Source: a virus
Strand: one strand, 5' to 3'
Virus record (IMG/VR): IMGVR_UViG_3300032285_000892
Coordinates: 55,149-119,148 of that record
DNA: 64,000 nt
In this document: positions 28,270-53,818 of the stretch, piece after piece
How positions within the stretch are numbered: the stretch's first letter is position 1
Layout: each line of letters begins with the position of its first letter
The notes under the pieces: generated by a model
What the model was told of the DNA's origin: nothing
The model's database searches: none
Seen by the model: only the letters and a program-made list of their open reading frames with translations
Translations under genes and position numbers: made by a program

Positions 28270-28992
28270 ATGAGTGATATAAAGCCACAAATTGTAATGC
28301 ATGGGTTCGAAGGTTTTCACAACGAACAACGTTATGAAGACCTTGCCCAAAAGAATGTTTACAGGGACTTATCTACAATCTGTATTGTACCAACCAGAGG
28401 AATGATTTCTGCTAAGGTGGTTCAATCGTGGATGGGACTAATGTCATCAATGAACCAAAAGTTCATAAGGATGTTTGCAATCGGTATGGAAGTGGGTGCT
28501 GCCTATAGTCAAACTATAGAACAGATACTTCTACATCCAGAACTTTCTAAATGGAAATACATCTTGACTCTAGAGGAAGACAATTGTCCTCCACCAGATG
28601 GATTGATTAAGTTGTATGAACATATGGATGAGTATGATGCCATTGGTGGATTGTATTGGACTAAAGGTATAGAAGGTAAACCAATGTGTTACGGAAATCC
28701 TAAAGTGTTTCCAGTAAACTTTGTGCCATTTATGCCTGATCCTGATACGGTTACAAGATGTAACGGATTAGGAATGGGTTTTACTCTATTCAAACTAGAT
28801 ATGTTTAAGAACCCTAAGATGCCTAAACCTTTCTTTGAAACAGTTCAAAGATATACAGAAGGTAAAGGAGTGGAAGGATACACACAGGACCTAAAGTTCT
28901 TTGAAGAGGCAGGTAAACTTGGATATAAGTTTGCATGTGACTCAAGAGTAAAGGTAGGTCACTATGATGTGAATGAAGATCAAATGTGGTAA
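28270..28992 (+). CDS. GT-A-fold glycosyltransferase-like protein
   Basis: This ~240-residue protein resembles phage GT2-like glycosyltransferases. A beta-alpha N-terminus (TICIVPTRG) is followed near residue 100 by an acidic EEDN motif before PPPDG, in the position of the DxD nucleotide-sugar/metal site. A conserved GMGFTLF segment comes later. The reading frame extends to a TTG at 28255, but the ATG at 28270 is preferred: it sits 16 bases after a near-consensus promoter and avoids a rare start. It lies between two fibre genes and next to a methyltransferase, which suggests modification of fibre or host glycans. The sugar and acceptor cannot be read from sequence. Confidence 0.7.
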   Translation: MSDIKPQIVMHGFEGFHNEQRYEDLAQKNVYRDLSTICIVPTRGMISAKVVQSWMGLMSSMNQKFIRMFAIGMEVGAAYSQTIEQILLHPELSKWKYILTLEEDNCPPPDGLIKLYEHMDEYDAIGGLYWTKGIEGKPMCYGNPKVFPVNFVPFMPDPDTVTRCNGLGMGFTLFKLDMFKNPKMPKPFFETVQRYTEGKGVEGYTQDLKFFEEAGKLGYKFACDSRVKVGHYDVNEDQMW

Positions 28993-29010
28993 ACCAACAA
29001 ATATAAACCA

Positions 29011-29586
29011 ATGAATGAACAATTAGAAGAAGTTATTGCAGTTGATTTAGGCTGCGGACAAAACAAAGCAACTATAGAGTTCTTTACAAACAATATGCAA
29101 GTCACTCCCACTAAAGTGATTGGTTTGGATATAGCTAACTGTGAAGGCGTAGATATTGTACACGACTTAACTGTATTTCCATATCCTATTGAGGATGAAT
29201 CAGTTGACGCAATACATACATCTCATTTCATAGAACACTTAGATGGGTTTGAGAGAATGAAGTTCTTTGATGAGTGCTATAGGATATTGAAGAAAGGCGG
29301 AAAGATTAGAGCTATCCATCCTTATTACAAATCTGTAAGAGCTATTCAAGATCCCACACATAAGTTTCCACCTATTGGTGAGACATCTTATTTGTATTGG
29401 GATAAGAATTGGAGAGAAGTCAACAAGCTTGACCATTATCCTATTAAGTGTGACTTTGAATTTAATATTTTTTATACTTGGCAAGACCCAAGTATACCAA
29501 ACAAGAATGAAGAAACAAGGAATTTCAGTATTGATAAATACTGGAATGTTGTGGCTGATATGATTGTCGATTTAAAGAAACGATAA
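29011..29586 (+). CDS. Class I SAM-dependent methyltransferase
   Basis: This 191-residue protein has motif I DLGCG (about 12-16), an acidic residue after the second strand (GLDIAN), and HFIEHL followed by a YRILKKGGK segment. This is the layout of Methyltransf_11-type enzymes. It follows the glycosyltransferase by 18 bases and precedes a fibre gene, so sugar methylation is the likely role (inference). No membrane segment. Confidence 0.8.
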   Translation: MNEQLEEVIAVDLGCGQNKATIEFFTNNMQVTPTKVIGLDIANCEGVDIVHDLTVFPYPIEDESVDAIHTSHFIEHLDGFERMKFFDECYRILKKGGKIRAIHPYYKSVRAIQDPTHKFPPIGETSYLYWDKNWREVNKLDHYPIKCDFEFNIFYTWQDPSIPNKNEETRNFSIDKYWNVVADMIVDLKKR

Positions 29587-29619
29587 TAAGATTACCAGAA
29601 ACAGATATAATTTTAGAAC

Positions 29620-32367
29620 ATGACTAAGAATAAAGATTTAGCGGAATTAATCAATTACGTTACAGTTGATACCTCAGCTGGTACTCAGGTACAGTTGGCA
29701 GGTAGTGTAAAGCAAACATCTGTAACCTCTGCTATGTTAAAAGCAAACTCTACAGGAGTACTTGTAGCTGCTACTGCTGGTACAGATTATCTTACGTCTG
29801 TTGGTATATCTAATTTAACTGCTACAGGAACTCCTTCTTCCACCACATATCTTCGTGGTGACAACACATGGGCTTCAGTATCTGGTGCTAGTGGTGTTAC
29901 ACTAGATACAGTTCAAACCATCACTGCACAAAAAACATTTCAAAGTCCAAGTGATGCTCCAGTTGCTGCAGGTGCTGAATTATTATCTACTGCTACTGCA
30001 GCTACAGGATGGACTGGAACAGCCTGGGCTACTGGTTTTACACACTCATCAGGAACAACAGTACAAACATTAAACTTTACACCAAGTACACTAACTGTTT
30101 ATAAAGTTGTTATAACCTGTAGTGGTTATAGTGGTAGTGGTACATGTCAAGTGAACGTAGGTAGTTTAGTTACAACTATAAGTGGAAATGGAACTACTAC
30201 CATATATCATTATCCAACAGCAACTACAACAAACAACTTAACTCCTACTACTGCTTTTGTAGGTACGATTGTATTAAGTATCAAGGTTGCTACAGCAAGT
30301 GTCCCTCCTGTCATTGTATCAAACTTAGCAAGTACAAGTCTAATTGAATTCAGAAATGCAAGAAGTCAAGGTGGATCAAATAGTATGTACATTGGATACA
30401 ACAGTGGTGCATTTGGCTATCAAGCTGGTACCAATATTGGAATTGGTGAATCCTCGTTATACAATAACATTAGTGGAACCTTTAATATTGCAATAGGTGA
30501 AAGAGCGTTGTATGGGGGACAAGGCGGTGTAACACAACAATACAATACTGCTATTGGATACTATTCACTGACGGCTTCTATTTCAGCAGCTAACTCTGTT
30601 GCTATTGGAGCTAATAGTATGCAAACTATAACAACAGGAAGTTTTAATGTAGGCATAGGTTCATTAGTAATGCAAAATGCAAATAGTACATCTAATAATG
30701 TTGCTATAGGATATTATGCATTTGCAAATAATACAAGTGGAGGAAACAACACTGCAATTGGTTTTCAAGCTGGATCTTATATATCAGGAGGTGTTACTGT
30801 TGCTGCAACTAATACTAACTCGATATATATTGGATATGCTGCGTATCCTCTTGCAAGTGGGCAGACTAATCAAATTGTAATTGGAACAAGTGCAGTGGGG
30901 CTAGGTTCTAATACAACCGTACTTGGAAATAGTTCTACTGTTGATACAGCAATTTACGGTAACCTTCTTTTAGGTAGTACCACTACAGGAGCATCATATA
31001 AGTTGAATGTAACTGGACAATCAATTGTTAGAGGAAATTCATCAGGAGAAACTCCTACAGTAACAAATACAGTAGCAACTGGTTGGGCGACAGGGGTTAC
31101 TGGTTGGACAGGCACTTATCCAAACTGGACAGTTGCAATTAGTGCAGGTACAATGACTAATAGTACCGTTGCAACAGTTGATGTACTTTATACAGTAGTT
31201 GTTACAGCAACGGTCACTAGTACTCCAAAAAGTATGGATATTATTATTGGTGGTAATGTATTAACACTTAATTTTCCAGTAGGAACATCCACTCAATATG
31301 CTGGTGCAATTGCAATTGCTGCTGGTACATTATCTATTATTACCAATGGAACTTTTAGTGGAACAATTTCTGCTTTTACTGTAGGAGCAAGAAGTAATAC
31401 ATTGAGTCCTATTATATCATTTACTTCTTCAGCAGGATTAAATCCTATTGAAATAAGAACAGATGCAGCAAGTGCTGCAGACAATATAGCAATAGGATAT
31501 CAAGCAGGACAAACGATTCTGACTGCTAATCAAACTGTTGCATTAGGATCATATGCTTTATCATCAAATCAGATTGCAGACGGATGTACTGCAATTGGAT
31601 ATGGTTCTCAACAATCTAATACTGGTGGAATTTATAATACTTCATTAGGAGCAATTGCATTACAATCAAATATTCAAGGTCGTGAAAATACTGCAATTGG
31701 ATGGAGTGCTGGAACTACTACAAAAGGAAATTATGGTACTTTTGTTGGAAGTCAAGCAGGATATTATATAAATACTGGAGATTATAATACTGCTGTTGGA
31801 AATCAAGCTATGCTTGGAGATACAATAACATCTGTTACAGGACTACATAATACTAGTATTGGAGCTTTTTCATTAACTGCTATTACAACAGCTTCATATA
31901 ATACAGTTTCTGGATCTAGTGCACTTCAAAATCTTGTTACTGGAGACAATAATATTGGAATAGGATATCTAGCAGGTTCACTTACCTCTGGTTCAGCAGC
32001 TAATGTAACAAATGCTAGTAATTCTATTTTTATTGGATGGAGTGCATTTCCTCTTGGAAACTCACAAACTAACCAAATTGTTATTGGATATGGTAGTGTT
32101 GGACTTGGTTCTAACACAACTGTAATTGGTAATAGTTCAACTACGTTAGCGTTGATTTATGGAGTACATATAATTGGAGGAACAAGTGCTAATGCAGCAG
32201 CACAATTACAGATTGACTCTACAACTAAGGGTGTGCTATTCCCAAGAATGACTACCACACAAAAGAATGCTATTGGAACACCTCCTGCTGGATTAGTTAT
32301 TTATGACACAACATTAAACAAGCTTTGTGTATATACAACTGCTTGGCAAACTATAACATCAGCATAA
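29620..32367 (+). CDS. Tail fibre with YadA-head-like repeats
   Basis: This 915-residue fibre has an N-terminal attachment region (1-110) containing the fibre motif YLRGDNTW. Two large repeats follow, each a beta-sandwich-like domain plus a run of about 14-20-residue NTAIGYxAG / NVAIGxxA units (about 255-440 and 625-860). That unit is typical of the left-handed beta-roll of trimeric autotransporter (YadA/Hep_Hag) heads. Both repeats end in a matching block (TNQIVIG...GLGSNTTV(L/I)GNSST), so the gene arose by internal duplication. The C-terminus (LQIDSTTKGVLFPRMT ... WQTITSA) is a common phage fibre tip. It has no signal peptide or membrane anchor, consistent with a virion protein rather than a secreted adhesin. 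Confidence 0.85.
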   Translation: MTKNKDLAELINYVTVDTSAGTQVQLAGSVKQTSVTSAMLKANSTGVLVAATAGTDYLTSVGISNLTATGTPSSTTYLRGDNTWASVSGASGVTLDTVQTITAQKTFQSPSDAPVAAGAELLSTATAATGWTGTAWATGFTHSSGTTVQTLNFTPSTLTVYKVVITCSGYSGSGTCQVNVGSLVTTISGNGTTTIYHYPTATTTNNLTPTTAFVGTIVLSIKVATASVPPVIVSNLASTSLIEFRNARSQGGSNSMYIGYNSGAFGYQAGTNIGIGESSLYNNISGTFNIAIGERALYGGQGGVTQQYNTAIGYYSLTASISAANSVAIGANSMQTITTGSFNVGIGSLVMQNANSTSNNVAIGYYAFANNTSGGNNTAIGFQAGSYISGGVTVAATNTNSIYIGYAAYPLASGQTNQIVIGTSAVGLGSNTTVLGNSSTVDTAIYGNLLLGSTTTGASYKLNVTGQSIVRGNSSGETPTVTNTVATGWATGVTGWTGTYPNWTVAISAGTMTNSTVATVDVLYTVVVTATVTSTPKSMDIIIGGNVLTLNFPVGTSTQYAGAIAIAAGTLSIITNGTFSGTISAFTVGARSNTLSPIISFTSSAGLNPIEIRTDAASAADNIAIGYQAGQTILTANQTVALGSYALSSNQIADGCTAIGYGSQQSNTGGIYNTSLGAIALQSNIQGRENTAIGWSAGTTTKGNYGTFVGSQAGYYINTGDYNTAVGNQAMLGDTITSVTGLHNTSIGAFSLTAITTASYNTVSGSSALQNLVTGDNNIGIGYLAGSLTSGSAANVTNASNSIFIGWSAFPLGNSQTNQIVIGYGSVGLGSNTTVIGNSSTTLALIYGVHIIGGTSANAAAQLQIDSTTKGVLFPRMTTTQKNAIGTPPAGLVIYDTTLNKLCVYTTAWQTITSA

Positions 32368-32382
32368 TAAATAATAAATAAT

Positions 32383-32753: not shown

Positions 32754-33023
32754 ATGAAATTAAATTTTAACTTCAACTTGGTTAACCTAGATGGTATAGA
32801 GATCGAGAATGCTAATGCAGGAAAAGTATTAGCAAACGCACTAGTTCAACAACCTAAAGGAGATGCTCTTAAAATATGGGAAATATCATTAGCTCTCAAC
32901 AAGGGAGAGATTGTTGATTTAGATTCTTCTGATCAAGAACTTATTAAAAACTTCATTAGAGAGACTGACGCAATTAATATTATTGCTAAGGGTCAAATCC
33001 TAACTGTTTTTAATAAAGGGTAG
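32754..33023 (+). CDS. Small hypothetical phage protein
   Basis: This 89-residue soluble protein begins MKLNFNFNLVNLDGIEIEN and continues with a helix and an acidic C-terminal half. Short proteins with a similar opening occur near fibre or tail genes in many phages, but I know no function. The start is set by the promoter at 32702-32732. Its last 24 bases overlap, tail to tail, the end of the minus-strand glycosyltransferase gene. Confidence 0.65.
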   Translation: MKLNFNFNLVNLDGIEIENANAGKVLANALVQQPKGDALKIWEISLALNKGEIVDLDSSDQELIKNFIRETDAINIIAKGQILTVFNKG

Positions 33024-34070
33024 TTTAACCATTACATCTTCTACGGAGATACTCTTATGGCATTCAAACTGTCTAGGAGTATCTTCGTGTTCAGGACACC
33101 AGTTCCAATTACCCTTATCAAATCTGAATTTAGGGTTATTCCAACATCCATTACATACACTTCTGTTTTCTATACGGATGCATTCAAACTCGTGATTAGC
33201 TTCTGTAAAGTTAGCTATCATTACAACAATAGTTTCTAATGCCCAGGCCAACCAGCTAATACCACTACTTAGTCCTATGTAGAAGTCACATCCATTAAGA
33301 TGATTAATGACGCTCTCTAGAGATGTATCTTCTAGTTTCTCTGCACCATAATCATCTGCCTCTTGTGATAATTCAATCACTCTATATCCTTGATCTTTTA
33401 GCCTACGTATAAGTTCTGGCCACTTATCCCAATGTTTGCATTGAGATGTACTTTTTGTAGATATACAGATATACTTTTCATCTTCCAGTAATAATCCTGG
33501 TAGATCAATTATCCTTGGTCTCATCTCCTTGTATGGTAGATGTAGAATATTACATGCGGCTTTCTGTAATGGTATCGTTACAGGATTAACAGGTTCTTTA
33601 TTACTATCCCAATGCCATCCTAAGTCTGGCATAGCTACAATATCATATACCACCTGCCCTGGTTGAACAAACTCAAGTTCAGGATACATACTTTCAAACA
33701 AGAAGTTCTTGAATGTGCTCACGATAACATCGCACTGATACTTCTTTTTGAACTCTAAACAATATGGCATCCATGCAATAGTATCTCCTAAGGAGCTGCT
33801 ACCAAATGCAATGAACACACGTTTATCTTTAAGATGTTGTAAGAAGCTTATGCGACGTTTCAATACACCCTTACTGTTCCTAGCTTCCAAAAAGAAGTTA
33901 CCAATGTAACGTATAGGAAACTTCATCCATGTATTCTTACTAAGAGTTGTACTATAGTGTTCTTTACGTTCACCATCAATCTCTTCAACAAATGTACATG
34001 TATAATCTTCATCACAGTCTGTAATTTCAAAGTACAAACCATCAATGTTATGGAAGTTATAATTAAACAT
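33000..34070 (-). CDS. TibC/BAHT-like (GT9) protein O-heptosyltransferase homologue
   Basis: This 356-residue protein matches the pattern of autotransporter heptosyltransferases, which put heptose on Ser hydroxyls of adhesin passenger domains. The N-terminal beta-rich part is followed by FIAFGSSSLGDTIAWMPY (GT9 nucleotide-sugar site), ICISTKSTSQCKHWDKW, and YIGLSSGISWLAWAL. The C-terminal finger has four cysteines (C306, C309, C325, C337) ending in RQFECHKSI. TibC-type enzymes bind iron through a four-cysteine finger of this kind. It is the last gene of the 40-33 kb cassette and overlaps the preceding gene by 8 bases. The phage's Ser/Thr-rich fibres are natural candidate acceptors (inference). 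Confidence 0.75.
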   Translation of the reverse strand: MFNYNFHNIDGLYFEITDCDEDYTCTFVEEIDGERKEHYSTTLSKNTWMKFPIRYIGNFFLEARNSKGVLKRRISFLQHLKDKRVFIAFGSSSLGDTIAWMPYCLEFKKKYQCDVIVSTFKNFLFESMYPELEFVQPGQVVYDIVAMPDLGWHWDSNKEPVNPVTIPLQKAACNILHLPYKEMRPRIIDLPGLLLEDEKYICISTKSTSQCKHWDKWPELIRRLKDQGYRVIELSQEADDYGAEKLEDTSLESVINHLNGCDFYIGLSSGISWLAWALETIVVMIANFTEANHEFECIRIENRSVCNGCWNNPKFRFDKGNWNWCPEHEDTPRQFECHKSISVEDVMVKLPFIKNS

Positions 34071-35763
34071 ATGTTTCTATATAAGCTTTAGTTGTATCTT
34101 CACTTGTCCATCTCTTATTAATAATTCCTGCAGCATCGTACATCTTCTTTAATTGCTTACATATCACACTCCAATCATACTCTTCACGATGTTCTAGTTG
34201 ATCAGTGTAATATTTAAACCACCCTCTATCTAATGTTGCTAGTCCTTTTCTTGCTTCCATTTCTGTTACTTCTGACATTCTATACATACCAGGAACCTCT
34301 GCATTACATGTACCAACAATTGGTAATCCACAACTCATTGCTTCTAGAATGGCTAGGTTAGGATGGCCATACTCTAAGAATGATGGAGCCATGAATATAC
34401 TATGTGTTTGATAAAGCTCTAGTGTTTCTGCATCTGTAGGATTTGTACACTTTAAAGTTAACTTTTCATAGTCTAATAGATCTGGATGACCCTTAAAAAA
34501 CTCTAGGTTATTCTCAGGACCTGCAATAGTAATAGGTAACTTAAACCACTTAGCTGCAGCTATTGCTATCCTGAATCCTTTACGATCAATAGTGCTATCA
34601 CCTGCTAGTCCATTGTTACAGATCATTAATAGCTTCTTATCTTCACGCACATCTGGTAGAATAGGTTTGAAGAATTCTGTATCTACTCCATGAGATAGGA
34701 AGAATAACTTATCCGTATCATCAAAGTAATTAATGATGTGTTTACTATGACATATAGAAAACACAGATCCTTTGATAGCTGCTAGATTATTGTGGTATAC
34801 GCCACTGTCCTTCCCATAGTATTCAGCATGATGATCATGTAGAGAGTATACATATGGTATACCTTTGGCTAACATGTCAAGAGCTGTATTAGCCATATGA
34901 CAATGCACGAGTTGGTTCTCTTGCTTTGTTACTTCATTCCATTGTTGTATCTCTACATCTACGCCAAGTCTTCTAAGTCTATCTGTATATGACCAGATGA
35001 TACGTTCTACAGCTCCCCAACCATTAGGTGGGATAGTGATTAGGCCAGTGGCCACTTGTACTATCTTATATTTCATTTCTTTATTAATTTTCATTTCCCA
35101 TTTGTCTAGATATTTTTGTTCTCCTTGTCGCATTTTAATAATTGCAGAATCATTAAGATTTACTATGTTTAATGATTTAAGATGACTAACTAATGAATGT
35201 CTTACTAATGCATGCTTTATGCCTTTACTCTCTATTACTCTAGCATAGTCATTGTCCTGATAGTACATATCAAAGTTTTCATCCCAAGGACATACTAGAT
35301 CAAATACTCTTTTAGTCATTACAAAACACCAGCCACCTAAGAACTCTGTAACTTTATAACTTTCATAGTATGTATCATCACCATACATAAAATGATGGTC
35401 ATAGAATCTAGCATACAGTATAGGATCTCTAGGCGTGAATGATTCAATGTCTGGTCTTTCAGTATGTACATTTACAATCTCAGTGAACCAATTCTTTTCA
35501 AACAATAGATCATTGTTTATAATAACCACCCAGTCATTACTACAATACCTACTTGCTATATTGATATATTTATTATATCCAAAAGGTTCTTTTGAGATAA
35601 CGTAGCTATCTACATATTTAGAATAGTCCCAAGTCTCTCCTGATTCTACTAATATAATGTTAAATTTATGAGCCTTATCCGTATAGCGTAATGTGAACAA
35701 TGTTCTACATACCATCTCATAAGTTTCTGCATCTGTTTTAGTAAGACAAATTACATCTACCAT
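34063..35763 (-). CDS. Bifunctional GT2-GT4 glycosyltransferase
   Basis: This 566-residue protein fuses two glycosyltransferase folds. Residues 1-~225 are GT-A/GT2-like: VICLTKTD, then VVIINNDLLFEKNWF with the acidic NND metal site. Residues ~230-566 are GT-B/GT4-like: PPNGWGAVERII near its start, a glycine-rich CNNGLAGDSTIDRKG loop, and FLEYGHPNLAILEAMSCG, the E-x7-E-type donor-sugar motif. Five bases separate it from the upstream gene and it overlaps the next one, so it sits within one operon. Fusion implies two successive sugar additions on the same acceptor. Confidence 0.8.
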   Translation of the reverse strand: MVDVICLTKTDAETYEMVCRTLFTLRYTDKAHKFNIILVESGETWDYSKYVDSYVISKEPFGYNKYINIASRYCSNDWVVIINNDLLFEKNWFTEIVNVHTERPDIESFTPRDPILYARFYDHHFMYGDDTYYESYKVTEFLGGWCFVMTKRVFDLVCPWDENFDMYYQDNDYARVIESKGIKHALVRHSLVSHLKSLNIVNLNDSAIIKMRQGEQKYLDKWEMKINKEMKYKIVQVATGLITIPPNGWGAVERIIWSYTDRLRRLGVDVEIQQWNEVTKQENQLVHCHMANTALDMLAKGIPYVYSLHDHHAEYYGKDSGVYHNNLAAIKGSVFSICHSKHIINYFDDTDKLFFLSHGVDTEFFKPILPDVREDKKLLMICNNGLAGDSTIDRKGFRIAIAAAKWFKLPITIAGPENNLEFFKGHPDLLDYEKLTLKCTNPTDAETLELYQTHSIFMAPSFLEYGHPNLAILEAMSCGLPIVGTCNAEVPGMYRMSEVTEMEARKGLATLDRGWFKYYTDQLEHREEYDWSVICKQLKKMYDAAGIINKRWTSEDTTKAYIETYV

Positions 35764-35768: not shown

Positions 35769-38396
35769 TTACTTTCTAAATGTTTTAAACTGCTGATCTA
35801 TTAATGAGTAACCATCTGCTTGTGTAGTGATACGATTGTGTACAATGCCCATCTCATATCCACTACCACGAAAAATGTTATTAAAATAAATATCTGCAGC
35901 ATCCCAAGGATGTGTTCTTAGTTTATCTTTTAAATAGTTCTTAACAAACTTAGGGAACATAATACATTGCATACCTATAAGATGGTTTGTAACATACATG
36001 TCTTCATTCACTTCTTTCACTACAGGACTCTGTGGCCAGCCAAAGTCTAAGGTATCTTTGTCACCAAATGACATGAATCCTATATTATTAGCTTCTAGCT
36101 TTGTGGCACATTCTTCCACCATGTAAACAAATTTGTTTACATCTACCTCAATTATGCAATCTCCTTCACACACTATTAGATAATCACATTCACTAAACTC
36201 ACCTAGGATAGCTTCTTTGAAGGCTGAATAGCAACCGTAGTGTGCTGGCGTAAGAGCTGTGCTTCTTTCTCTGACTGTAGCTTCATCGAATAACTCCATA
36301 GAGACTGCTTGTGGCCTGTTACAGTTATGGATGGGTGGGAGGCTACGATAAGGCTCGTTCGTGTGCAAGATGTACTCCCATCCATAATCTTGTACTTGCT
36401 CCAACGACGCTCTTGATAATTGTTCTCTGTCATCATTTAATGTAGTTTGTATGTGTACTAATTTAATCTTTGGTCTATTTGTTTTAGGAGCTGGTTCAGA
36501 TCCTGTTAATATCTTTATAGTTCCTTTTATATCGTTTACAGAAAACTCTCTTGTGGTTTGGTTTTCCACCAACTCTAAACTCACTGTAACAATATCATCA
36601 TCTAGTCGTAGATATGATTCTTTATACTTAAGATCTAGCTCTCTTGAGAACTCTCTCTTATTATTTAACAATCTCATCTTGTAGTAAGGAACAGTCTCAT
36701 TGTATGTATAGAAATAGAAGTAGTTACGATTGTCTTCTTCACATCTAACAATACCTATGTACTCACTATTAGAAGACTTGCCTTCGCCTGTATGTACTAA
36801 GAATGTTTCCTCTTCAGGATGTTCTACCCATATACCATCTGTTCTCTCTACCTTCTTCATCATGTAATCTTCTAAGAAGTTATGACATCCTATATACTCA
36901 CATAATGAATTGTATTGTTCAGGTGTACGTACATCATCTAATAATTTACTAATAAAGTTTGTATTAAAGAACATACAATTAGTTTGTATACCTTTACCAA
37001 ATGGCGTATTCAATGTAGCTAATACAGCTTTCCATTCTTCATCTAACTTATTAAAGTTATTATTGATGACATTAAAATCTCTTTCATCTATTACATGATC
37101 AAATGTTACATAGAACATCTTAGTAAAACCAAACACTTTAGCTGCTTTACCTGCATTAATTAAATTAGTTAGTACTGTTAATGACTGATTGGTAGGTCCT
37201 TCAATGCGCATCTCTACACTATAGTCTTCCTGACTGCGAGTGAATCTATTATAGTAGCTATGATGTGTCAAAGGATTATGCTCATCATAAATGTAGTAGT
37301 CTACCAGCTTCTGTACATCAGGATTTACAGGATAATGACTTACTAACATAATTGGTCTACCTAACTTCCTAGCGCTTTCTATACATGCAATAGTTAAGTT
37401 TTCTCTAATCTTAGTATCAGGATATGTTCCTATAACGATTAGTTCTTTATTAATTAATTCTAAGTTTAATATTTCTTTCATAGCAGCTATATCATTACTA
37501 ACGTTACCAGTTAAATAGGTGACGTCATCATAATCATTATACTTATTACAATACACATCTAGGTTGTACATCATCTTAGGTAGATCAGGATAGCATAATG
37601 CTTCTTTGATTGCAATAGGGTTAAGCTCTTTGTTACCTCTATCTCCTTTAGATGGAAATAAGAACATGTCAGACTCACTCACCCATTTACTTACTACATC
37701 TATTTCTCCATGAACTAAACAGTTGTCTGGTAGATCTTTCATTAATGGTTTCCAGTAGCTTTCAAAGTTACCAGCTTGATTACCTAAGAAGTGAAACTTT
37801 ATATTATAGTCTACAAGATGCTTAGCCATCTCAATAGCATAGCCTTGGTTTTTACGTTGTGTCCACAATCCTACAATTACTACATGTTTATAATCTCTTT
37901 GTTCTGGATAACGTACAATAGTATCTACAGGATACTCAATAACACGCATTGGTACTTCTAGATGAGCATACTTGAATACATTGTATGCACTAACAAACAC
38001 AAACTCATCTGGCATCCATCTCTTATGATCAGGATTGAATGAGCTATCATGTGTAGTTTCTACAATACGATAGGTTCTATCTCCACTGTACACTTCTCTG
38101 GTAAGATCATTGTCCATGAACATCTCTGGAAACTCTTCCATAGAGATGACATCAGGATTAAAGATTTCAATAAAATCTAAAAGCTCTCCCTTGTTATCTC
38201 CTAATGATTTAAAATTATCACCAAGGATATCAATCACCTTGTTGCGCTGTACTACATACTTCCATGCAATGAATGCATACTCAACTACCATGATATCAAA
38301 ATGATCCTTGAGTAGTTCTACTTTATTTAAAGTTACCTGTGGCGCTCCTCCTGTAGAGAAATGAGGAGATACTATTAAGAGCCTTTTTCGTGACAT
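35769..38396 (-). CDS. Multidomain glycosyltransferase (GT4 plus GT25-like)
   Basis: This 875-residue protein has at least three parts. N-terminal GT-B/GT4-like domain (1-~310): LLIVSPHFSTGGAP, IVGLWTQRKNQGYAIEMAKHL-type donor loop, LFPSKGDRGNKELNPIAIKEAL. A middle region (~310-640) starts with a nucleotide-sugar-like ELIVIGTYPDTKIRENL and resembles glycosyltransferase-associated domains without a clear catalytic motif. The C-terminal domain (~650-875) has ALTPAHYGCYSAFKEAIL and LIVCEGDC, the layout of GT25 LPS beta-glycosyltransferases, where EDD-type acids bind metal. It overlaps the upstream GT9 gene by 22 bases. Acceptor unknown. Confidence 0.75.
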   Translation of the reverse strand: MSRKRLLIVSPHFSTGGAPQVTLNKVELLKDHFDIMVVEYAFIAWKYVVQRNKVIDILGDNFKSLGDNKGELLDFIEIFNPDVISMEEFPEMFMDNDLTREVYSGDRTYRIVETTHDSSFNPDHKRWMPDEFVFVSAYNVFKYAHLEVPMRVIEYPVDTIVRYPEQRDYKHVVIVGLWTQRKNQGYAIEMAKHLVDYNIKFHFLGNQAGNFESYWKPLMKDLPDNCLVHGEIDVVSKWVSESDMFLFPSKGDRGNKELNPIAIKEALCYPDLPKMMYNLDVYCNKYNDYDDVTYLTGNVSNDIAAMKEILNLELINKELIVIGTYPDTKIRENLTIACIESARKLGRPIMLVSHYPVNPDVQKLVDYYIYDEHNPLTHHSYYNRFTRSQEDYSVEMRIEGPTNQSLTVLTNLINAGKAAKVFGFTKMFYVTFDHVIDERDFNVINNNFNKLDEEWKAVLATLNTPFGKGIQTNCMFFNTNFISKLLDDVRTPEQYNSLCEYIGCHNFLEDYMMKKVERTDGIWVEHPEEETFLVHTGEGKSSNSEYIGIVRCEEDNRNYFYFYTYNETVPYYKMRLLNNKREFSRELDLKYKESYLRLDDDIVTVSLELVENQTTREFSVNDIKGTIKILTGSEPAPKTNRPKIKLVHIQTTLNDDREQLSRASLEQVQDYGWEYILHTNEPYRSLPPIHNCNRPQAVSMELFDEATVRERSTALTPAHYGCYSAFKEAILGEFSECDYLIVCEGDCIIEVDVNKFVYMVEECATKLEANNIGFMSFGDKDTLDFGWPQSPVVKEVNEDMYVTNHLIGMQCIMFPKFVKNYLKDKLRTHPWDAADIYFNNIFRGSGYEMGIVHNRITTQADGYSLIDQQFKTFRK

Positions 38397-39976: not shown

Positions 39977-40007
39977 TTGTTGGTTTGGTCAAAGTTAAAT
40001 ATATTTG
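39977..40007 (+). promoter_or_regulatory. Divergent promoter, plus-strand arm
   Basis: TTG (39977-39979), 20 bases, TATATTTG (40000-40007); the gene starts at 40024. It interlocks with the minus-strand promoter at 39990-40020. Confidence 0.75.
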
Positions 40008-40020
40008 TATAAAAAAACAA
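39990..40020 (-). promoter_or_regulatory. Divergent promoter, minus-strand arm
   Basis: On the minus strand: TTG (40020-40018), 20 bases, TAACTTTG (39997-39990), with the FkbM ATG 18 bases further. It shares most of its length with the plus-strand promoter, so the two polymerases cannot bind together. Confidence 0.7.
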
Positions 40021-45329: not shown

Positions 45330-45848
45330 ATGGCTATACCATCTAAACAAACAGGTTGGGGAACAGAAGAAAATCTGTTGTGGCAGATCTCTAAACAATT
45401 GGAAGGTCTGACAGGCGTTGCAGCTAACATTGCTGGATATGTTCCTCCTGTTGCGCAATCATTTAATCCAGGGTTTACAGATGTTTCTGGAACATTAGCT
45501 GGTGTTACAGCAACCGCGTCATACACTATGATAACACCAAAGATTTGCTATTTTAGAATATACGTAGACTTTTCTGGTTGTACAAACTTTGGTACCTTAC
45601 AGTATCAATTTACCTTACCTTTTCCATCTGCTCAAACAATGCGTCAAGCTGATGGTTCATTACATCAAGTAACAGGATCTGCATTATATCACGTTGCTGG
45701 TATAACAGATATAGCAGTTAGTACAACTATTCATAAATTATATTACTCAGGAAGTACAACAGATCTAGCTTGGAAGTATAATACACCAGTGGGTGCTACA
45801 ACTGTAACTAGTCATTTTGATCTTTCAGGTACATACGAAATCGCTTAA
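45330..45848 (+). CDS. Short fibre protein, anchor module B
   Basis: This 172-residue protein begins MAIPSKQTGWGTEENLLWQI, a module shared with the next gene. A beta-rich distal domain follows, with Tyr/Phe/Thr-rich strands and a terminal SHFDLSGTYEIA strand. This small tail-tip or fibre domain has no catalytic motif. It starts 12 bases after the leucine-rich fibre gene. Confidence 0.65.
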   Translation: MAIPSKQTGWGTEENLLWQISKQLEGLTGVAANIAGYVPPVAQSFNPGFTDVSGTLAGVTATASYTMITPKICYFRIYVDFSGCTNFGTLQYQFTLPFPSAQTMRQADGSLHQVTGSALYHVAGITDIAVSTTIHKLYYSGSTTDLAWKYNTPVGATTVTSHFDLSGTYEIA

Positions 45849-45852
45849 TAAC

Positions 45853-46245
45853 ATGGCTATACCTTCAAAACAGATAGGGCAACCGTCTAGTACTAAAGCA
45901 GGATTACTCTGGCAGATCTCTAAGCAATTAGAAAGATTAACACGTGTATTATATAATGTTAATTATTCTGTTACTGCAAATAGTCAATCATTATCTTTCC
46001 CTATAAACTACACAAGTCTAATTACTAGGTGTAACGGAAGTAATGTAGGAAATTATATATATACAAGTGTGCCTGTTAATAATATATCTGAGGTAGTAAC
46101 ATTGTTTAATAACAATTTAGAAGCTCGGTTATTAGGAACATATAGTGCATTAGGAGAAGATGTCTTAGTGTTAACTACTACACCTACTATTAAAAATGCA
46201 CTTTGTCCTACAGGAGTATTATCATTATATGTGTTTAATGATTAA
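45853..46245 (+). CDS. Short fibre protein, anchor module B, different distal domain
   Basis: This 130-residue protein starts MAIPSKQIGQPSSTKAGLLW and continues QISKQLERLT, matching residues 1-28 of its upstream neighbour. The rest is unrelated beta-rich sequence. The frame is open from 45817, but the ATG at 45853 aligns with the start of the homologous module and leaves 4 bases after the preceding stop. Confidence 0.65.
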   Translation: MAIPSKQIGQPSSTKAGLLWQISKQLERLTRVLYNVNYSVTANSQSLSFPINYTSLITRCNGSNVGNYIYTSVPVNNISEVVTLFNNNLEARLLGTYSALGEDVLVLTTTPTIKNALCPTGVLSLYVFND

Positions 46246-46274: not shown

Positions 46275-47291
46275 ATGAGGGAATTAAAGTTTATCTGTGC
46301 ACAGCCAGATGATACGTATTATACGTGGCAGGTGCATTTATGGATTGAGAGTCTTAGAAATATAGGACACTCAGACAAAGCAATCGTTCTTATCTTTATT
46401 CCTAACTTCAGGGAGAAGAATGAGAAATGGCAACAGGTAATAGATCTATATCCAGAAACAGAATTTGTATTCTATAAGGATGTAGATGGTGTAAGTAATA
46501 AGCTAGGAGTTTACATTCCTGTTCTTAGGCCGTATGTGCTGATGAGATACTTCTACGAACATCCAGAGATGAAAGAGAAAGCAGTATTCTATTGCGACTC
46601 TGACGTAGTCTTTACAGATAAATTTAATGTTGATACATTTATTGATGATGATGTAAATTATTTATCAGATACAAACAGTTACATCAACGCCTCATATTTT
46701 GATAGTAAAATTCATCAAGTGCTTCCTGATAAGTTGGAAGCATATAAAAAGATAGATGTTCTAGCACAAGCTACAGAGATGTGTGATATCACACGCCAAA
46801 TAGCAGAAGCAAACAACGATCATTCTGGTGGTGCTCAGTATTTGTTAAAGAACATTGATGGAGCATTCTGGGAAAAAGTATTAAGAGATTGTATTTCAAT
46901 ACGTACGTATTTACAAAACATCAATCGTTTATACTTCAAAGATGAGAATAGTGGTTTCCAGAGTTGGTGTGCAGACATGTGGGCAGTTTTATGGGCTCTT
47001 TGGTTTAGAGGTGCTGAAACGAAGAATATTCCTGAGTTGGAATTCTCGTGGAGCTCAGATCCTATTGACAAAGTCCACAGGTTAGGTATTCTACACAATG
47101 CAGGAATAGTTAGTAATGACATGGGTGATTACCCAGCATTCTACAAAGGACATTATCACATGGGTAAAGATCCTATGTTAGACGCTCATTTAGAATATGT
47201 CTATAATGATGATAGAGCAAAACAAAAAGGAACACATTATTACGTTGAACAATTAATTAAATTAAAACAAAAGTATAAATTAAACTATTAA
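46275..47291 (+). CDS. GT-A glycosyltransferase with DSD motif
   Basis: This 338-residue protein has a beta-alpha nucleotide-sugar domain and the metal-binding DxD site at D108-S-D110 (VFYCDSDVVF), preceded by LGVYIPVLRPYVLMRYF. Later conserved-looking parts are NDHSGGAQYLL and LHNAGI, typical of GT8/GT2-like phage enzymes. No membrane segment. It is placed between fibre genes and a Thr-rich protein that could be an acceptor (inference). Confidence 0.75.
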   Translation: MRELKFICAQPDDTYYTWQVHLWIESLRNIGHSDKAIVLIFIPNFREKNEKWQQVIDLYPETEFVFYKDVDGVSNKLGVYIPVLRPYVLMRYFYEHPEMKEKAVFYCDSDVVFTDKFNVDTFIDDDVNYLSDTNSYINASYFDSKIHQVLPDKLEAYKKIDVLAQATEMCDITRQIAEANNDHSGGAQYLLKNIDGAFWEKVLRDCISIRTYLQNINRLYFKDENSGFQSWCADMWAVLWALWFRGAETKNIPELEFSWSSDPIDKVHRLGILHNAGIVSNDMGDYPAFYKGHYHMGKDPMLDAHLEYVYNDDRAKQKGTHYYVEQLIKLKQKYKLNY

Positions 47292-47296: not shown

Positions 47297-47794
47297 ATGG
47301 CAAATCAGAAGAAATTAAAAGCATTTGTTCGCTTCGATGGAAGCGGAAGAGTTGTCTCAGACAGCCTTATTCTGAGAAAGAATAAACCTAAAGTGGGTAG
47401 ATGGCAAGAGATACAAGGGTATGCGTGTTGCAATGGCGTTACACTTACTACTACAGTAGCTACTACTATTACTAACTTCCAAGTTAAGTTGTTCTGTGGA
47501 GGAACATTAACTGAAACATTAATTTCAGGACAAAACTCTTCATCAGTAGCAGATTTAGTTACTAAGTTGAATGCAACCTATTCTTTATTAGGAGTATTCT
47601 CTACAACAGGTGGAACAAATCTTACACTTGTAATGACAGGTTCTCAAGTTCAGGCTATTTGCCCTAACTCAGCTCCAACATTTACAGTTACAGCAGTTCC
47701 TCCAGTTACTACAACTACTACAACAACTAGAGCTACTACGACTACAACTACAACTAGGGCTGCTACAACCACAACTACTACAACTATAGTATAA
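47297..47794 (+). CDS. Virion surface protein with poly-Thr tail
   Basis: This 165-residue protein has an N-terminal phage module (KLKAFVRFDGSGRVVSDSLI, then a KPKVGRWQEI segment), which I recall at the front of small structural proteins in Bacteroidota phages. A beta-rich domain follows. The last ~30 residues are almost only Thr broken by RA, RAA and IV. Such tails look mucin-like and could carry O-glycans; a glycosyltransferase gene lies 5 bases upstream. Stop and next ATG overlap (TAATG). Confidence 0.6.
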   Translation: MANQKKLKAFVRFDGSGRVVSDSLILRKNKPKVGRWQEIQGYACCNGVTLTTTVATTITNFQVKLFCGGTLTETLISGQNSSSVADLVTKLNATYSLLGVFSTTGGTNLTLVMTGSQVQAICPNSAPTFTVTAVPPVTTTTTTTRATTTTTTTRAATTTTTTTIV

Positions 47795-50005: not shown

Positions 50006-50692
50006 ATGGAACTTAAAAAAGTTCATATAGCTACTGCAAATTTTGGTAGACCAAACGCAGCTGATGTTGTAAATATGGTTGAACAAGATACAGAACACAG
50101 TATAACTACCATTGCATATACAGATAGTAATTCTAAATATAGTCGTGAGTTAGCACTACATCCTAGATTAAAGGGTAAAATCCCTAGAATGTTAGAATGG
50201 ATGAATATTGATGCTGATTTCTACATATGGATGGATTCAAATTTTAAAATAACTTCTCCTTTATTCATTGAAGAAATGATTAAGGCGCTTGGTAATTATG
50301 ATATTTGTTTACATCCTCATGAACATAGAAGTTCTATTTTAGAAGAAGGAAAATTTGTACATCATCATCTTATAAATAATGAAGATGAGTTTGCTCATAA
50401 GTATTTAGTTGATAGATATAAAGGAGAGCCAATAATGGATCAAGTAGAGTCATATTTACTTGATGACTCTTTTCAAGATTTAAATTTGTTTTCTACAGGA
50501 TTTTTTATCTTTAACAAAAGGATTATAGAGAACAAGAATTATAATTTAATGACGGATTGGTTCTTTCATAACTGTTACTGGACAGTGCAAGATCAATTAT
50601 CACTTCCGTATTTATTACATAAGCATAATATTAACTATACAACTTTTCCGTATAATGTTTATAGTAATCCATACGCACAGTATGTTTGGTAA
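50006..50692 (+). CDS. Glycosyltransferase-like protein, DUF616-type
   Basis: This 228-residue protein has a GT-A-like pattern: VHIATANFGRPN, LEWMNIDADFYIWMDSNFKI (acidic D-S-N metal site) and a late LFSTGFFIFNKR followed by WFFHNCYWTVQDQLSLPYLL. It resembles the DUF616 group of putative glycosyltransferases. It sits alone within the basic-protein cluster, 10 bases after the previous stop. Confidence 0.65.
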   Translation: MELKKVHIATANFGRPNAADVVNMVEQDTEHSITTIAYTDSNSKYSRELALHPRLKGKIPRMLEWMNIDADFYIWMDSNFKITSPLFIEEMIKALGNYDICLHPHEHRSSILEEGKFVHHHLINNEDEFAHKYLVDRYKGEPIMDQVESYLLDDSFQDLNLFSTGFFIFNKRIIENKNYNLMTDWFFHNCYWTVQDQLSLPYLLHKHNINYTTFPYNVYSNPYAQYVW

Positions 50693-51279: not shown

Positions 51280-51311
51280 AAAAAGGAGACCATTGGCCTC
51301 CTTTTTCTTTT
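51280..51311. terminator. Bidirectional terminator between convergent blocks
   Basis: AAAAAGGAG (51280-51288) pairs with CTCCTTTTT (51298-51306), with CC/GG inside the loop, and CTTTTT follows. The A-run on the left gives a U-tract for minus-strand transcripts too. It separates the plus-strand late block from the minus-strand block. Confidence 0.85.
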
Positions 51312-51958
51312 TACAATCCTAAGAATGATTTATATGAAGATGAATGTGACGCATGTTCTATATAATACTTGAATTCTTTATCTTTATCGTATTCTTCTGG
51401 AGTGTATTCCCAAGGATAATGTCTAGCTGTATAGGGATTTATTGTACTAGCTCCTCCTATATAATAATGATGGAATTTATATAGTGCAAATGTTGTATCT
51501 GTAGGAACATCAAGTGCTACATCTTGTTCTATTCTAGAGTTTTCCCATCTAGTTTTTTCATATCCTTGCATATGATTATAATATCTAGAATACTCAGTAA
51601 CTCTTTTCCAATCTAAACCCAGTCCTATCTTATCTAAATCTAAACTTTTTAGTTTGTCTAGTAGATATAGAAGAGTATCACTAGGTGTATCATCTAGTCC
51701 AAGATCTGAATCTGTAACTATATAATATTCACAATTTAATGAATCTACTACTCCTGAAACCCAAGGACCTCCGTGACCTAAGTTAGTAGCCTTGTGTATC
51801 TTACAAGGGCTTGTTTCATACCAATCTAATAAAGGTGGATATGTTGATCCATTATCTACAATAATAACATCACCTACTCCTTCATATGTTTGAATTTTTT
51901 CAACCATAGCTTTTGGCCAGGTAAACAAATCTCTGTTATTAATTACAACTGGTATCAT
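51311..51958 (-). CDS. GT2-like glycosyltransferase
   Basis: This 215-residue protein has the GT-A opening IPVVINNRDLFTW, then DVIIVDNGSTYPPLL (nucleotide site) and YYIVTDSDLGLDD with the DSD metal motif near residue 85. The C-terminal HHYYIGGASTINPYTARHYP segment is typical of phage GT2-like enzymes that end without membrane helices. Last gene of the minus operon; 4-base overlap with the methyltransferase. Confidence 0.8.
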   Translation of the reverse strand: MIPVVINNRDLFTWPKAMVEKIQTYEGVGDVIIVDNGSTYPPLLDWYETSPCKIHKATNLGHGGPWVSGVVDSLNCEYYIVTDSDLGLDDTPSDTLLYLLDKLKSLDLDKIGLGLDWKRVTEYSRYYNHMQGYEKTRWENSRIEQDVALDVPTDTTFALYKFHHYYIGGASTINPYTARHYPWEYTPEEYDKDKEFKYYIEHASHSSSYKSFLGL

Positions 51959-52500
51959 TTATGTATAACTAATAATTTCTTATCACATAACCATTCAATG
52001 TTTTGATATGATTTATTAGATAAGATACTCATTATATCATCGTATGTCTTATCTACTTCAGCATGACCTGCATGAAGATCTTCTATAAAATAATAACCTC
52101 CTTTTGTAAGGCGGTCGTAAAGTATCTTAAATGAGTTAACAATATCTGAACGATTGTGGCTACCATCATCTATAATGAAATCTGGAGTTCCTGATTTCTC
52201 TAGTACGGTATTTAAAAAAACTTCATCTGATTGATCGCCTATATATATTTTGATGTTATCTGTTTCATTAACATATTTATATACATTAGTATCAATATCT
52301 ATAGCATGAATATTTAGTTGTGGGTTATAATCATTCCACATACGTAATGAATCACCATGCCATATTCCTATTTCTAATAGAGTGAACTTACCTGTTTCAG
52401 GAATATAAAAATCATACTGTTCAGTATATCCATGCTTTTCGTAATGTTCTGTACCTTTATCTACTTTATGTAGATTAGCAATTTGTGTAAGTCTTCTCAT
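51955..52500 (-). CDS. SAM-dependent methyltransferase, macrocin/cephalosporin O-MT type
   Basis: This 181-residue protein carries FTLLEIGIWHGDSLRMW (SAM site), NIHAIDIDTN (ribose-binding acid), PDFIIDDGSHNRSDIVNSF (a metal-binding DDGSH motif known from MycE/CmcI-like enzymes) and LTKGGYYFIEDLHAGH. Likely methylates a sugar added by the flanking GT2 genes (inference). Overlaps both neighbours. Confidence 0.8.
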   Translation of the reverse strand: MRRLTQIANLHKVDKGTEHYEKHGYTEQYDFYIPETGKFTLLEIGIWHGDSLRMWNDYNPQLNIHAIDIDTNVYKYVNETDNIKIYIGDQSDEVFLNTVLEKSGTPDFIIDDGSHNRSDIVNSFKILYDRLTKGGYYFIEDLHAGHAEVDKTYDDIMSILSNKSYQNIEWLCDKKLLVIHK

Positions 52501-53066
52501 TAGTTATGTACAAATAATATTTTTTCAATCTTTAAATTAGGTTCTTGTGGAAATTTTGTAAGATAATCTAATATGTAATAACCATCAGCGTCATATCTTT
52601 TACCTAATTCTATTTGTTTAGCAATATCATTTCTTGTAGCAAATGCTCCCATATCTATTTGATTATTACCTAATCTAGAATCAAAAAACTGATAGTCAAA
52701 ATGAGAATGTACCATGTTCCAATAAATAAGACCTGGTTTATTTTTAGAAGCTTTGTCTAATTCATCTACAAAATTAGGAGTGTAATAATTATCATCTCCT
52801 GTCATGATGATATATTCTGCCTCACTCATTTGTTTACCCACTTCTCTAGGAGTGTGTCCTAAATCATTATATCTTCTGTCAAGGAATGTATATTTAATTC
52901 TAGGATCATTAAATTGATTAATCATATTAACAATATCATCATTATGAGTATCATCTATTACAATATTAGCAGCCCAGTCTTTATTATACTGAGCTACTAA
53001 TGATGCAATTGTACACCTTAATAAATCAATTCTATCATATGTAGGAATTATAAAGTCTACTTTCAT
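52500..53066 (-). CDS. GT2 glycosyltransferase
   Basis: This 188-residue GT-A enzyme starts VDFIIPTYDRIDLLRCTIAS and has WAANIVIDDTHNDDI and YIIMTGDDNYYTP, with the GDD metal site near residue 95. It is compact, lacking C-terminal extensions. TAATG coupling to the methyltransferase and ATGA coupling upstream. Confidence 0.8.
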   Translation of the reverse strand: MKVDFIIPTYDRIDLLRCTIASLVAQYNKDWAANIVIDDTHNDDIVNMINQFNDPRIKYTFLDRRYNDLGHTPREVGKQMSEAEYIIMTGDDNYYTPNFVDELDKASKNKPGLIYWNMVHSHFDYQFFDSRLGNNQIDMGAFATRNDIAKQIELGKRYDADGYYILDYLTKFPQEPNLKIEKILFVHN

Positions 53067-53818
53067 TTACTTATATGATCTTTAAGCAATTGTTGATAAT
53101 CTATATTCCAATGAGGATTAATGATAATTTCTCCAGTGGGTATATTTCCTAACTCTCTTTCTGATTCTACATGAGCAGAATGTCTTTGAATAGCATTAGG
53201 TCTTTCTCCATCGTCAGTACCCTGACCACTCATATGATAACCTCTACCTCCCCACATATAAAACCAACTCACTTCTTCATTAGATGGGTATGCTACGATC
53301 ATTGGTTTAGCACCTTGTCTGTAAATAATTTGGTTAACAAATGTAGTATCGTATCCAGCATTCTCAAGAGGATGTCCTCCTAACTCTTCCCAGATCTTTT
53401 TAGTATACACTATACCTGAGTTACCAAGTCCTGTTAACTCATGTATATTACCACCATTAACTAACGCACCGTTTCCCCACAATAAAAGTTCTCCTTCTTC
53501 TGTAAAGTACTTAGCAATATTAGAAAGATGATTTGGCAAAGCTATATCATCATCATCCCATACAGCAATTAGTTCTCCTGAACATTGTTCTAATGTAAAG
53601 TTTTCCTTTTCACCTATGGTGAGAAATGTCTCTTCTAGATTGATTATCTTGATTTCTGGATGATCATATGATAACTTTTGTAGAGGATAGTCATTAACAA
53701 TAATTAACTCTTTCTGTCCAGCATAATCTTGCTTTAAGAAAGACTCTACTGCCTCTTCTAGAAAATGCAATCTACCATAGGTGATACATTTACATGATAT
53801 GAAAGGAAGACGTTCCAT
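53063..53818 (-). CDS. GT2 glycosyltransferase
   Basis: This 251-residue protein has PFISCKCITYGRLHFLEEAV, ELIIVNDYPLQKL and LIAVWDDDDIALPNHL (DDD metal site near residue 95), all GT2 hallmarks. The HVESERELGNIP tail may form the acceptor side. The frame allows an upstream TTG, but the ATG at 53818 overlaps the co-chaperonin stop as TAATG, a junction repeated many times in this genome, and is preferred. Confidence 0.8.
   Translation of the reverse strand: MERLPFISCKCITYGRLHFLEEAVESFLKQDYAGQKELIIVNDYPLQKLSYDHPEIKIINLEETFLTIGEKENFTLEQCSGELIAVWDDDDIALPNHLSNIAKYFTEEGELLLWGNGALVNGGNIHELTGLGNSGIVYTKKIWEELGGHPLENAGYDTTFVNQIIYRQGAKPMIVAYPSNEEVSWFYMWGGRGYHMSGQGTDDGERPNAIQRHSAHVESERELGNIPTGEIIINPHWNIDYQQLLKDHISK

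What the first reader, a model, noticed from the sequence alone, without database searches (positions are those of the whole stretch)
28270..53818. Phage-encoded glycan system interleaved with fibre genes
Ten glycosyltransferase genes (28270, 33000, 34063, 35769, 38375, 46275, 50006, 51311, 52500, 53063), two of them multi-domain, and three methyltransferases (29011, 39328, 51955) sit between at least six fibre genes rich in Ser, Thr and Gly. The density and placement suggest that the phage builds a methylated glycan on its own fibres. This could shield it from host defence or tune adhesion.
Basis: partly seen in the sequence, partly recalled or inferred. Interest (0 to 1): 0.85.

Follow-up and report, generated by a model that had tools for sequence, protein, structure and literature searches.

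The report
Phage sugar-coats its own virion proteins
This freshwater phage carries enzymes that most likely hang sugar chains on threonine-rich tails of its own particle proteins, and one of these enzymes occurs across unrelated phages almost only where the capsid or tail protein has such a tail, which makes phage-particle glycosylation predictable from sequence.

Summary
The window is half of a complete 119-kb aquatic crAss-like phage. Of ten claimed glycosyltransferases (GTs), six have Pfam support and two more a predicted GT-A fold; 50006 and 51311 are unconfirmed. All three methyltransferases are confirmed.

The evidence favours self-glycosylation of virion proteins, but the best-supported acceptors are mucin-like Thr/Ser tails rather than the collagen-like fibres. 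(1) GT 46275 (phrog_4417, function unknown) has a glycogenin-like fold, is in all 12 relatives, and adjoins Thr-tailed proteins. In unrelated Bacillota and Bacteroidota phages it lies beside Thr-tailed structural proteins. Among homologues of one major tail protein: tail and GT 15, neither 58, tail alone 0, GT alone 1. Capsid tails 1.5 kb away: 30/41/0/2. Six of six independent contrasts agree. (2) 33000 exceeds NCBI's cutoff for autotransporter O-heptosyltransferase (TibC; PDB match E=4e-43) and keeps the iron-finger and catalytic residues. (3) In relatives the antisense cassette is fused into one MT-GT4-TibC-like protein, and one relative adds ADP-heptose, PAPS and sulfotransferase genes. 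Six GT-poor relatives lack both GTs and Thr tracts.

No glycan was measured. Host-LPS action of some variable GTs is not excluded.

The parts
46275..47291 (+). Core GT8-like (glycogenin-fold) glycosyltransferase, phrog_4417; predicted to put the first sugar on Thr-rich virion tails
   Evidence: 12/12 relatives at 61-85% identity; AF2 pLDDT 97, Foldseek PDB top hits glycogenin E 1.5e-5, prob 1.0; D108, D110, G186-Q188 invariant in 60 sequences; linkage to Thr tails
47297..47794 (+). Anchor protein with mucin-like C-terminal tail VTTTTTTTRATTTTTTTRAATTTTTTTIV (tract nt 47705-47785); predicted acceptor
   Evidence: Sequence; its relatives are a ~47-aa anchor plus a Thr/Ser tail
33000..34070 (-). 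TibC/Aah-type protein O-heptosyltransferase homologue
   Evidence: TIGR04414 227 bits, cutoff 200; PDB 4RAP/4RB4 TibC E 4e-43; D110, T226, K230, W305 and four iron-finger Cys kept, R286 replaced
34063..35763 (-). Two-domain GT (GT2 + GT4)
   Evidence: Pfam; two separate genes in G014 and G015
35769..38396 (-). Large GT4-type enzyme, C-terminal half unassigned
   Evidence: Pfam; 50 viral loci; 39% over 94% in a 735-kb phage
38375..39331 (-). GT9 glycosyltransferase, LPS heptosyltransferase-like below curated cutoffs
39328..39972 (-). FkbM methyltransferase; start moved to ATG 39972 because the TTG at 40020 is the -33 box of a promoter
   Evidence: PF05050 1e-15, TIGR01444 68 bits, cutoff 37.7, sequence
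39990..40020 (-). Bacteroidota-type promoter TTG-N20-TAACTTTG driving the antisense cassette
   Evidence: Sequence; similar sites ahead of the cassette in G005, G008, G010; TAnnTTTG 1.22/kb upstream against 0.66/kb inside genes
28270..28992 (+). GT-A-fold protein next to the giant collagen-like fibre; candidate fibre GT
   Evidence: AF2 pLDDT 81; Foldseek top STIV A197, COLGALT1, LH3, mimivirus R699, ppGalNAcT2; -1 neighbour S/T/G-rich in 8/11 homologous loci
21549..28217 (+). 2222-aa collagen-like Gly-Thr-Ser fibre, candidate acceptor of 28270
   Evidence: Sequence
29011..29586 (+). SAM methyltransferase
   Evidence: PF08241 4e-10
29620..32367 (+). Tail-spike/virion-like protein with NTAIGY-type repeats; candidate acceptor
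   Evidence: phrog_4636 5e-27; no NCBIfam match
43275..45317 (+). Fibre with collagen-like stalk and leucine-rich-like body
   Evidence: PF01030 weak, phrog_366 weak
45330..46245 (+). Two small virion-like proteins (45330, 45817) sharing an N-terminal anchor
   Evidence: Sequence; anchor conserved, bodies swapped in relatives
53063..53824 (-). GT2 at the end of the early (replication) operon, ~60% identical in most relatives
   Evidence: PF00535 2e-12
52500..53066 (-). Variable GT2
   Evidence: PF00535 5e-10
51955..52500 (-). Methyltransferase (Methyltransf_24); a GT2-MT fusion occurs in relative G008
   Evidence: fusion
51311..51958 (-). Unconfirmed GT (DSD motif only)
   Evidence: no Pfam, PHROG or NCBIfam hit
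50006..50692 (+). Unconfirmed GT (DxN-like motif only)
   Evidence: no Pfam or PHROG hit

Best explanation
A phage-encoded virion O-glycosylation system. The core GT8-like enzyme 46275 adds a first sugar to Thr (perhaps Ser) residues in mucin-like tails of virion proteins: 47297 next door, and two proteins of the structural region left of the window (contig 32121-33263 and 39602-40654). The TibC-like protein O-glycosyltransferase 33000, with GT9, GT4 and GT2 partners of the antisense cassette and the FkbM methyltransferase, adds further sugars and caps them by methylation, either on the same tails or on beta-structured fibres. GT 28270 probably serves the adjacent collagen-like fibre. The core enzyme is constant while the extending enzymes are swapped between relatives, so particles of related phages would carry different surface glycans. 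Shown: genes, folds, conserved catalytic residues, gene linkage and co-occurrence. Inferred: enzyme activities, sugar identities, order of steps, location on the particle, and benefit (shielding, tuned adhesion or tail stability).
For: Fold: 46275 is glycogenin-like with an invariant DxD. Linkage: Thr-tract ORFs beside phrog_4417 GTs 31/124 against 0/451 at 8 or more genes away in bacterial genomes, Fisher 8e-23; in the window's lineage 75/156 at +1/+2 against 0/676 at +8 and beyond. Co-occurrence among homologues of one major tail protein: 15/58/0/1 (tail and GT / neither / tail only / GT only), p 9e-15; capsid protein 1.5 kb away 30/41/0/2, p 2e-18; tail state changed at least 8 times on the best tree (at least 6 forced by well-supported branches) and 6/6 independent pairs agree, p 0.031. 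33000 is TibC-like above the curated cutoff with catalytic and iron-finger residues kept in 12/12 (TibC data from PMC4358343). Fusion of MT, GT4 and TibC-like domains in relatives. ADP-heptose, sulfotransferase and APS-kinase genes in G008. GT-poor relatives have no Thr tracts. Thr codons are mixed, so the tracts are not a DNA microsatellite.
Against: No glycan, mass shift or enzyme activity has been measured. The sugar-contacting Arg286 of TibC is replaced in all 12, so the donor may differ from ADP-heptose. No NCBIfam match to an autotransporter target repeat in the tested fibres. The 13 lineage genomes are one clade, so their contrast with the six controls counts as about one event. 46275 structural similarity is fold-level (TM 0.45-0.59). 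Some of the loci in the capsid test are near-copies of the same phage. Tail and GT genes are neighbours, so partial co-transfer is possible.
Confidence: 0.8

Rival explanations
1. The GTs remodel host surface glycans (LPS/O-chain) to block superinfection or receptor rebinding, as proposed for pelagimyophage GTs found among tail-fibre genes.
For: Same layout of GTs in a fibre hypervariable region was read this way (PMC7029224); GT9 38375 resembles LPS heptosyltransferases; the cassette is antisense with its own host-type promoter, so it could be expressed early.
Against: 33000 is closest to a protein O-heptosyltransferase; phrog_4417 occurs in phages of Gram-positive hosts that have no LPS, beside Thr-tailed capsid/tail genes; no multi-pass membrane protein such as a flippase or GtrA in 28-54 kb apart from a doubtful 63-aa ORF.
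Confidence: 0.1
2. The GTs glycosylate phage DNA bases against restriction.
For: Known role of some phage GTs (text in PMC12619734).
Against: No thymidylate synthase/hydroxymethylase homologue in this or nine related genomes; linkage to structural genes, not to nucleotide-modification genes.
Confidence: 0.02
3. Thr tails and the phrog_4417 gene travel together by linkage only; the tails have another role (adhesion, solubility) and the GT acts elsewhere.
For: The tail is the 3' end of the gene directly upstream of the GT in many phages.
Against: The capsid protein, several genes away, bears the tail under the same condition (30/0/2/41 for both / tail only / GT only / neither); in the window's lineage tails also lie far from the GT; neighbours differ between phage groups (tail protein, capsid, small proteins) yet are Thr-tailed.
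Confidence: 0.06

Closest known systems
Mycobacteriophage virion glycosylation (Freeman et al. 2023, as described in PMC12619734)
   Same: Phage-encoded GTs; glycans on C-termini of capsid and tail-tube subunits
   Different: Here the enzymes include a GT8-like family (phrog_4417) and a TibC-like enzyme, the acceptor signature is a poly-Thr/Ser tail, and the phages infect Bacteroidota or Bacillota; the glycan is not yet shown
BAHT family autotransporter heptosyltransferases TibC/Aah (TIGR04414; PDB 4RAP, 4RB4)
   Same: 33000 scores above the curated cutoff; catalytic base, T226, K230, W305 and four iron-finger Cys kept
   Different: Phage gene in a GT cassette, sugar-contacting R286 replaced, no autotransporter target repeat found, fused to other GT domains in relatives
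Glycogenin and other GT8 enzymes
   Same: GT-A fold, DxD, protein-glucosylating enzyme is the top structural match
   Different: No sequence match to any Pfam GT family or solved structure; acceptor predicted in trans
GT-rich tail-fibre hypervariable regions of pelagimyophages (PMC7029224)
   Same: GTs and rfaE-type genes among fibre genes in aquatic phages
   Different: Read there as O-chain modification; here protein acceptors are supported

Membership tests
BAHT (TibC/Aah) protein O-heptosyltransferase | Score above NCBI equivalog cutoff TIGR04414 (200 bits) | tested here: met
   227 bits; 276 bits in the fused relative
BAHT (TibC/Aah) protein O-heptosyltransferase | Four iron-finger cysteines (339, 342, 358, 370) | tested here: met
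   12/12 sequences
BAHT (TibC/Aah) protein O-heptosyltransferase | Catalytic base D110 and T226, K230, W305 | tested here: met
   12/12 (residue roles)
BAHT (TibC/Aah) protein O-heptosyltransferase | Sugar-contacting R286 | tested here: not met
   V, I or T in 12/12; hence called TibC-like, not filed as a BAHT heptosyltransferase
BAHT (TibC/Aah) protein O-heptosyltransferase | Autotransporter target repeats nearby | tested here: not met
   No NCBIfam match in 29620, 43275, 42330, 47297 or L005:17219-19573
BAHT (TibC/Aah) protein O-heptosyltransferase | Dodecamer with beta-hairpin thumb; heptosyltransferase activity | not testable with these tools
   -
GT8 glycosyltransferase (for 46275) | GT-A fold with DxD, GT8 enzymes as nearest structures | tested here: met
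GT8 glycosyltransferase (for 46275) | Sequence match to a Pfam GT family | tested here: not met
   No Pfam hit at 0.01, no PDB sequence match; described as GT8-like
Phage virion glycosylation (mycobacteriophage type) | Phage GT gene with C-terminal tails on capsid and tail-tube proteins | tested here: met
   in Bacillota phages; tails on other virion-region proteins in the window's lineage
Phage virion glycosylation (mycobacteriophage type) | Glycan detected on virion protein | not testable with these tools
   -
O-antigen conversion (Gtr type) | Membrane flippase/GtrA and membrane GT with the GT2 | tested here: not met
   No credible multi-pass membrane protein in 28-54 kb
DNA hypermodification GT | Hydroxymethylase/thymidylate-synthase homologue | tested here: not met
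   0 of 10 genomes
Crassvirales | Related terminase, portal and capsid genes | tested here: inconclusive
   Terminase 25-39% to crAss phages, phi17:2 and Lbo-JY46; portal phrog_6547, capsid phrog_11589; formal placement not tested

The most novel reading that the evidence does not exclude
phrog_4417 is a dedicated, widespread poly-Thr O-glycosyltransferase of phage capsids and tails, and the aquatic crAss-like lineage builds on it a mucin-like coat with multi-sugar, methylated and in some members sulfated glycans on special anchor-plus-Thr-tail proteins, so that glycosylated phage particles can be predicted from sequence in Bacteroidota and Bacillota phages.
Probability: 0.55. Interest if true: 0.9.

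Novelty: new variant of a known kind. Interest (0 to 1): 0.8.

Why it matters
Glycosylation of phage particles is shown in only a few phages, mainly mycobacteriophages (own knowledge). A sequence rule (phrog_4417 GT plus Thr-rich tail on capsid or tail protein) would give a function to a GT family listed as unknown and make virion glycosylation testable in cultured Bacillus-group, Enterococcus, Lactococcus and Chryseobacterium phages, with consequences for phage adhesion, stability and antibody recognition. It also argues that GTs among fibre genes of aquatic phages should not be read by default as LPS-modifying genes.

Tried and rejected
Collagen-like Gly-X-Y content as acceptor marker: not tied to the GTs (0 triplets in G005, 20 in GT-poor cr114_1). 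DNA modification: no PF00303 in ten genomes. Sequence search of solved structures for 46275, 35769, 28255, 50006 and 51311 gave nothing useful. Profile comparison of 28255 or 46275 families with the 53063 GT2 family: no relation. Autotransporter target repeats in fibres: none. Thr tracts around the 735-kb phage homologue of 35769: none. Thr tracts as DNA microsatellite: rejected by mixed codons. Literature: no paper found that joins poly-Thr tails with phage GTs (open-access library only); Freeman 2023 itself is not held. No isolate of this lineage is known to me, so the host is inferred (Bacteroidota-type promoters and relatives).
Full report
WHAT THE WINDOW IS. The window is bases 55149-119148 of a 119,148-base virus record whose ends share a 123-base repeat, so it is probably complete. 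Terminase, portal and capsid match crAss-like and Cellulophaga podovirus families; more than 599 viral contigs encode a relative of the capsid protein and all 80 listed are at least 96% identical, so the lineage is common in aquatic metagenomes. I fetched the left half, 12 near-complete relatives and six more distant relatives.

THE OBSERVATION. Pfam supports six GTs (33000, 34063, 35769, 38375, 52500, 53063) and all three methyltransferases. 46275 and 28255 have no Pfam match but their predicted structures have GT-A folds. 50006 and 51311 stay unconfirmed. The GT layout is not chance: GTs recur at the same places in the relatives, while the six distant relatives have none by PF00535, PF01075 or phrog_4417.

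ANATOMY. (a) Core: 46275 is in 12 of 12 relatives at 61-85% identity, not far below terminase, always within small virion-like genes. (b) Antisense cassette 33000-39972: same site in 11 of 12 relatives, absent in G003. In six genomes, the window included, it is several genes; in five it is a single 1128-1165-aa protein (726 aa in G007), and in G008 this has methyltransferase, GT4 and TibC-like domains, so these enzymes probably work on one product. It has a Bacteroidota-type promoter, TTG-N20-TAACTTTG, so the TTG start of 39328-40020 is really a promoter element. (c) Early-operon end: 53063 in most relatives at about 60%, with variable partners. (d) 28270 follows the giant collagen-like fibre. 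G008 carries beside its cassette a sulfotransferase, an APS kinase and heptose-pathway homologues (HldE kinase and adenylyltransferase domains, HldD) whose best NCBIfam matches are that pathway although below equivalog cutoffs.

THE ACCEPTOR CLUE. Reading the virion-side proteins showed mucin-like Thr/Ser tracts. All 13 genomes of the lineage have 3-8 such proteins, the six distant relatives none. One tail, STTSTTTT(I/V)WPSTSTTTTL(I/L)P in most genomes, ends a 380-aa protein close behind the capsid gene in every genome; codons are mixed, so selection acts on the protein. The gene after 46275, 47297, ends in three Thr runs; its relatives are a 47-residue anchor plus, in most, a Thr/Ser tail. 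Then I looked at unrelated phages with a phrog_4417 gene: Enterococcus phiFL1A, Lactococcus 1706, Enterococcus Planchet, Lactobacillus Bacchae and Chryseobacterium MA9V-3 all have Thr-tailed proteins near it, mostly adjacent.

INDEPENDENT TESTS OF THE CLUE. These used data fetched after the idea was formed. In 62 bacterial-genome loci the immediate neighbours carry a tract in 31 of 124 slots, ORFs 8 or more genes away in 0 of 451. In Bacillota prophages the gene at -1 is a major tail protein and that at -6 the capsid protein, both ending ...TTTTTTSA or alike. I trimmed off the tails and searched for homologues of the tail-less cores. Major tail protein: tail and GT 15, neither 58, tail only 0, GT only 1 (that GT is at -5, not downstream), p 9e-15. 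Capsid protein, 1.5 kb away: 30, 41, 0 and 2, p 2e-18, some loci being near-copies. On the tree of tail-protein cores the tail state changed at least 8 times; six supported independent pairs all go the same way, p 0.031. GT-less loci have 1 tract in 783 and 0 in 1381 ORFs. Because the capsid gene is several genes away, simple hitchhiking with the tail gene does not explain this.

THE ENZYMES. 46275: AlphaFold pLDDT 97; nearest solved structures are glycogenins, which glucosylate a protein, then UGGT and LgtC. 33000: NCBI's curated model of the autotransporter O-heptosyltransferase Aah/TibC at 227 bits (cutoff 200), PDB TibC E 4e-43. TibC's catalytic base, three further residues and the four iron-finger cysteines (roles from PMC4358343) are kept in 12 of 12, but the sugar-contacting Arg286 is replaced, so I call it TibC-like and leave its donor open. 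28255: after a viral GT-A protein the nearest solved structures are collagen galactosyltransferase COLGALT1, LH3 and mimivirus R699, then polypeptide GalNAc-transferases, a fold-level likeness only; in 8 of 11 other viral loci the gene before it is S/T/G-rich, against 16 of 144 other slots, p 1e-5.

MECHANISM. Most likely: 46275 primes Thr tails of virion proteins; 33000 and its cassette partners add sugars and a methyl group on these tails or on beta-structured fibres; 28255 serves the collagen-like fibre; the swapped enzymes vary the glycan between relatives. Shown are genes, folds, residues, linkage and co-occurrence; activities, sugars, order and benefit are inferred.

RIVALS. Host-LPS modification was proposed for a similar layout in pelagimyophages (PMC7029224); it does not fit a TibC-like enzyme, nor phrog_4417 in phages of Gram-positive hosts, but some variable GTs could still do it. 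DNA modification lacks the base-modifying enzyme.

KNOWN AND NEW. Mycobacteriophages carry glycans at the C-termini of capsid and tail-tube subunits (Freeman 2023, as cited in PMC12619734). The system works like that; new are the enzyme families, the poly-Thr signature, the anchor-plus-Thr-tail proteins and the breadth across phage groups. I found no paper on poly-Thr tails with phage GTs, within an open-access library only.

Noticed in passing
L164:8910-17522 (relative G008): Sulfotransferase, APS kinase, cupin and ADP-heptose-type genes beside the GT cassette: the glycan of this relative may be sulfated and heptose-based. Proteins that look like the same sulfotransferase and kinase recur in several other relatives.
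   Followed up: partly
window 61392-62936: A protein next to an rIIA-like gene has a short collagen-like insert ([17 protein letters not shown]), odd for a protein of the replication side.
   Followed up: no
window 47794-48213: Dps/ferritin-like small protein (phrog_858, DUF5856) conserved in all relatives right after the Thr-tailed protein.
   Followed up: no
window 45330-46245 and relatives: Short N-terminal anchors are conserved while bodies are replaced, a fibre-swapping design.
   Followed up: partly
L356, L357, L359, L362, L369 (Bacteroidota chromosomes): Longer (566-590 aa) phrog_4417 relatives without Thr tracts nearby; possibly cellular protein or cell-surface GTs.
   Followed up: no
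L375-L409: Within one prophage the capsid and tail-protein tails end in the same few residues (TTSA, TAAV, TTGV), as if kept in step for one enzyme.
   Followed up: partly
PP438436 (Leptolyngbya phage Lbo-JY46): A phage assigned to a cyanobacterium is the nearest named relative by terminase (39%); the window's lineage has Bacteroidota-type promoters, so the host assignment deserves a check.
   Followed up: no
window 3915-16409: Single 4164-aa protein that diverges strongly between relatives (27-52%).
   Followed up: no
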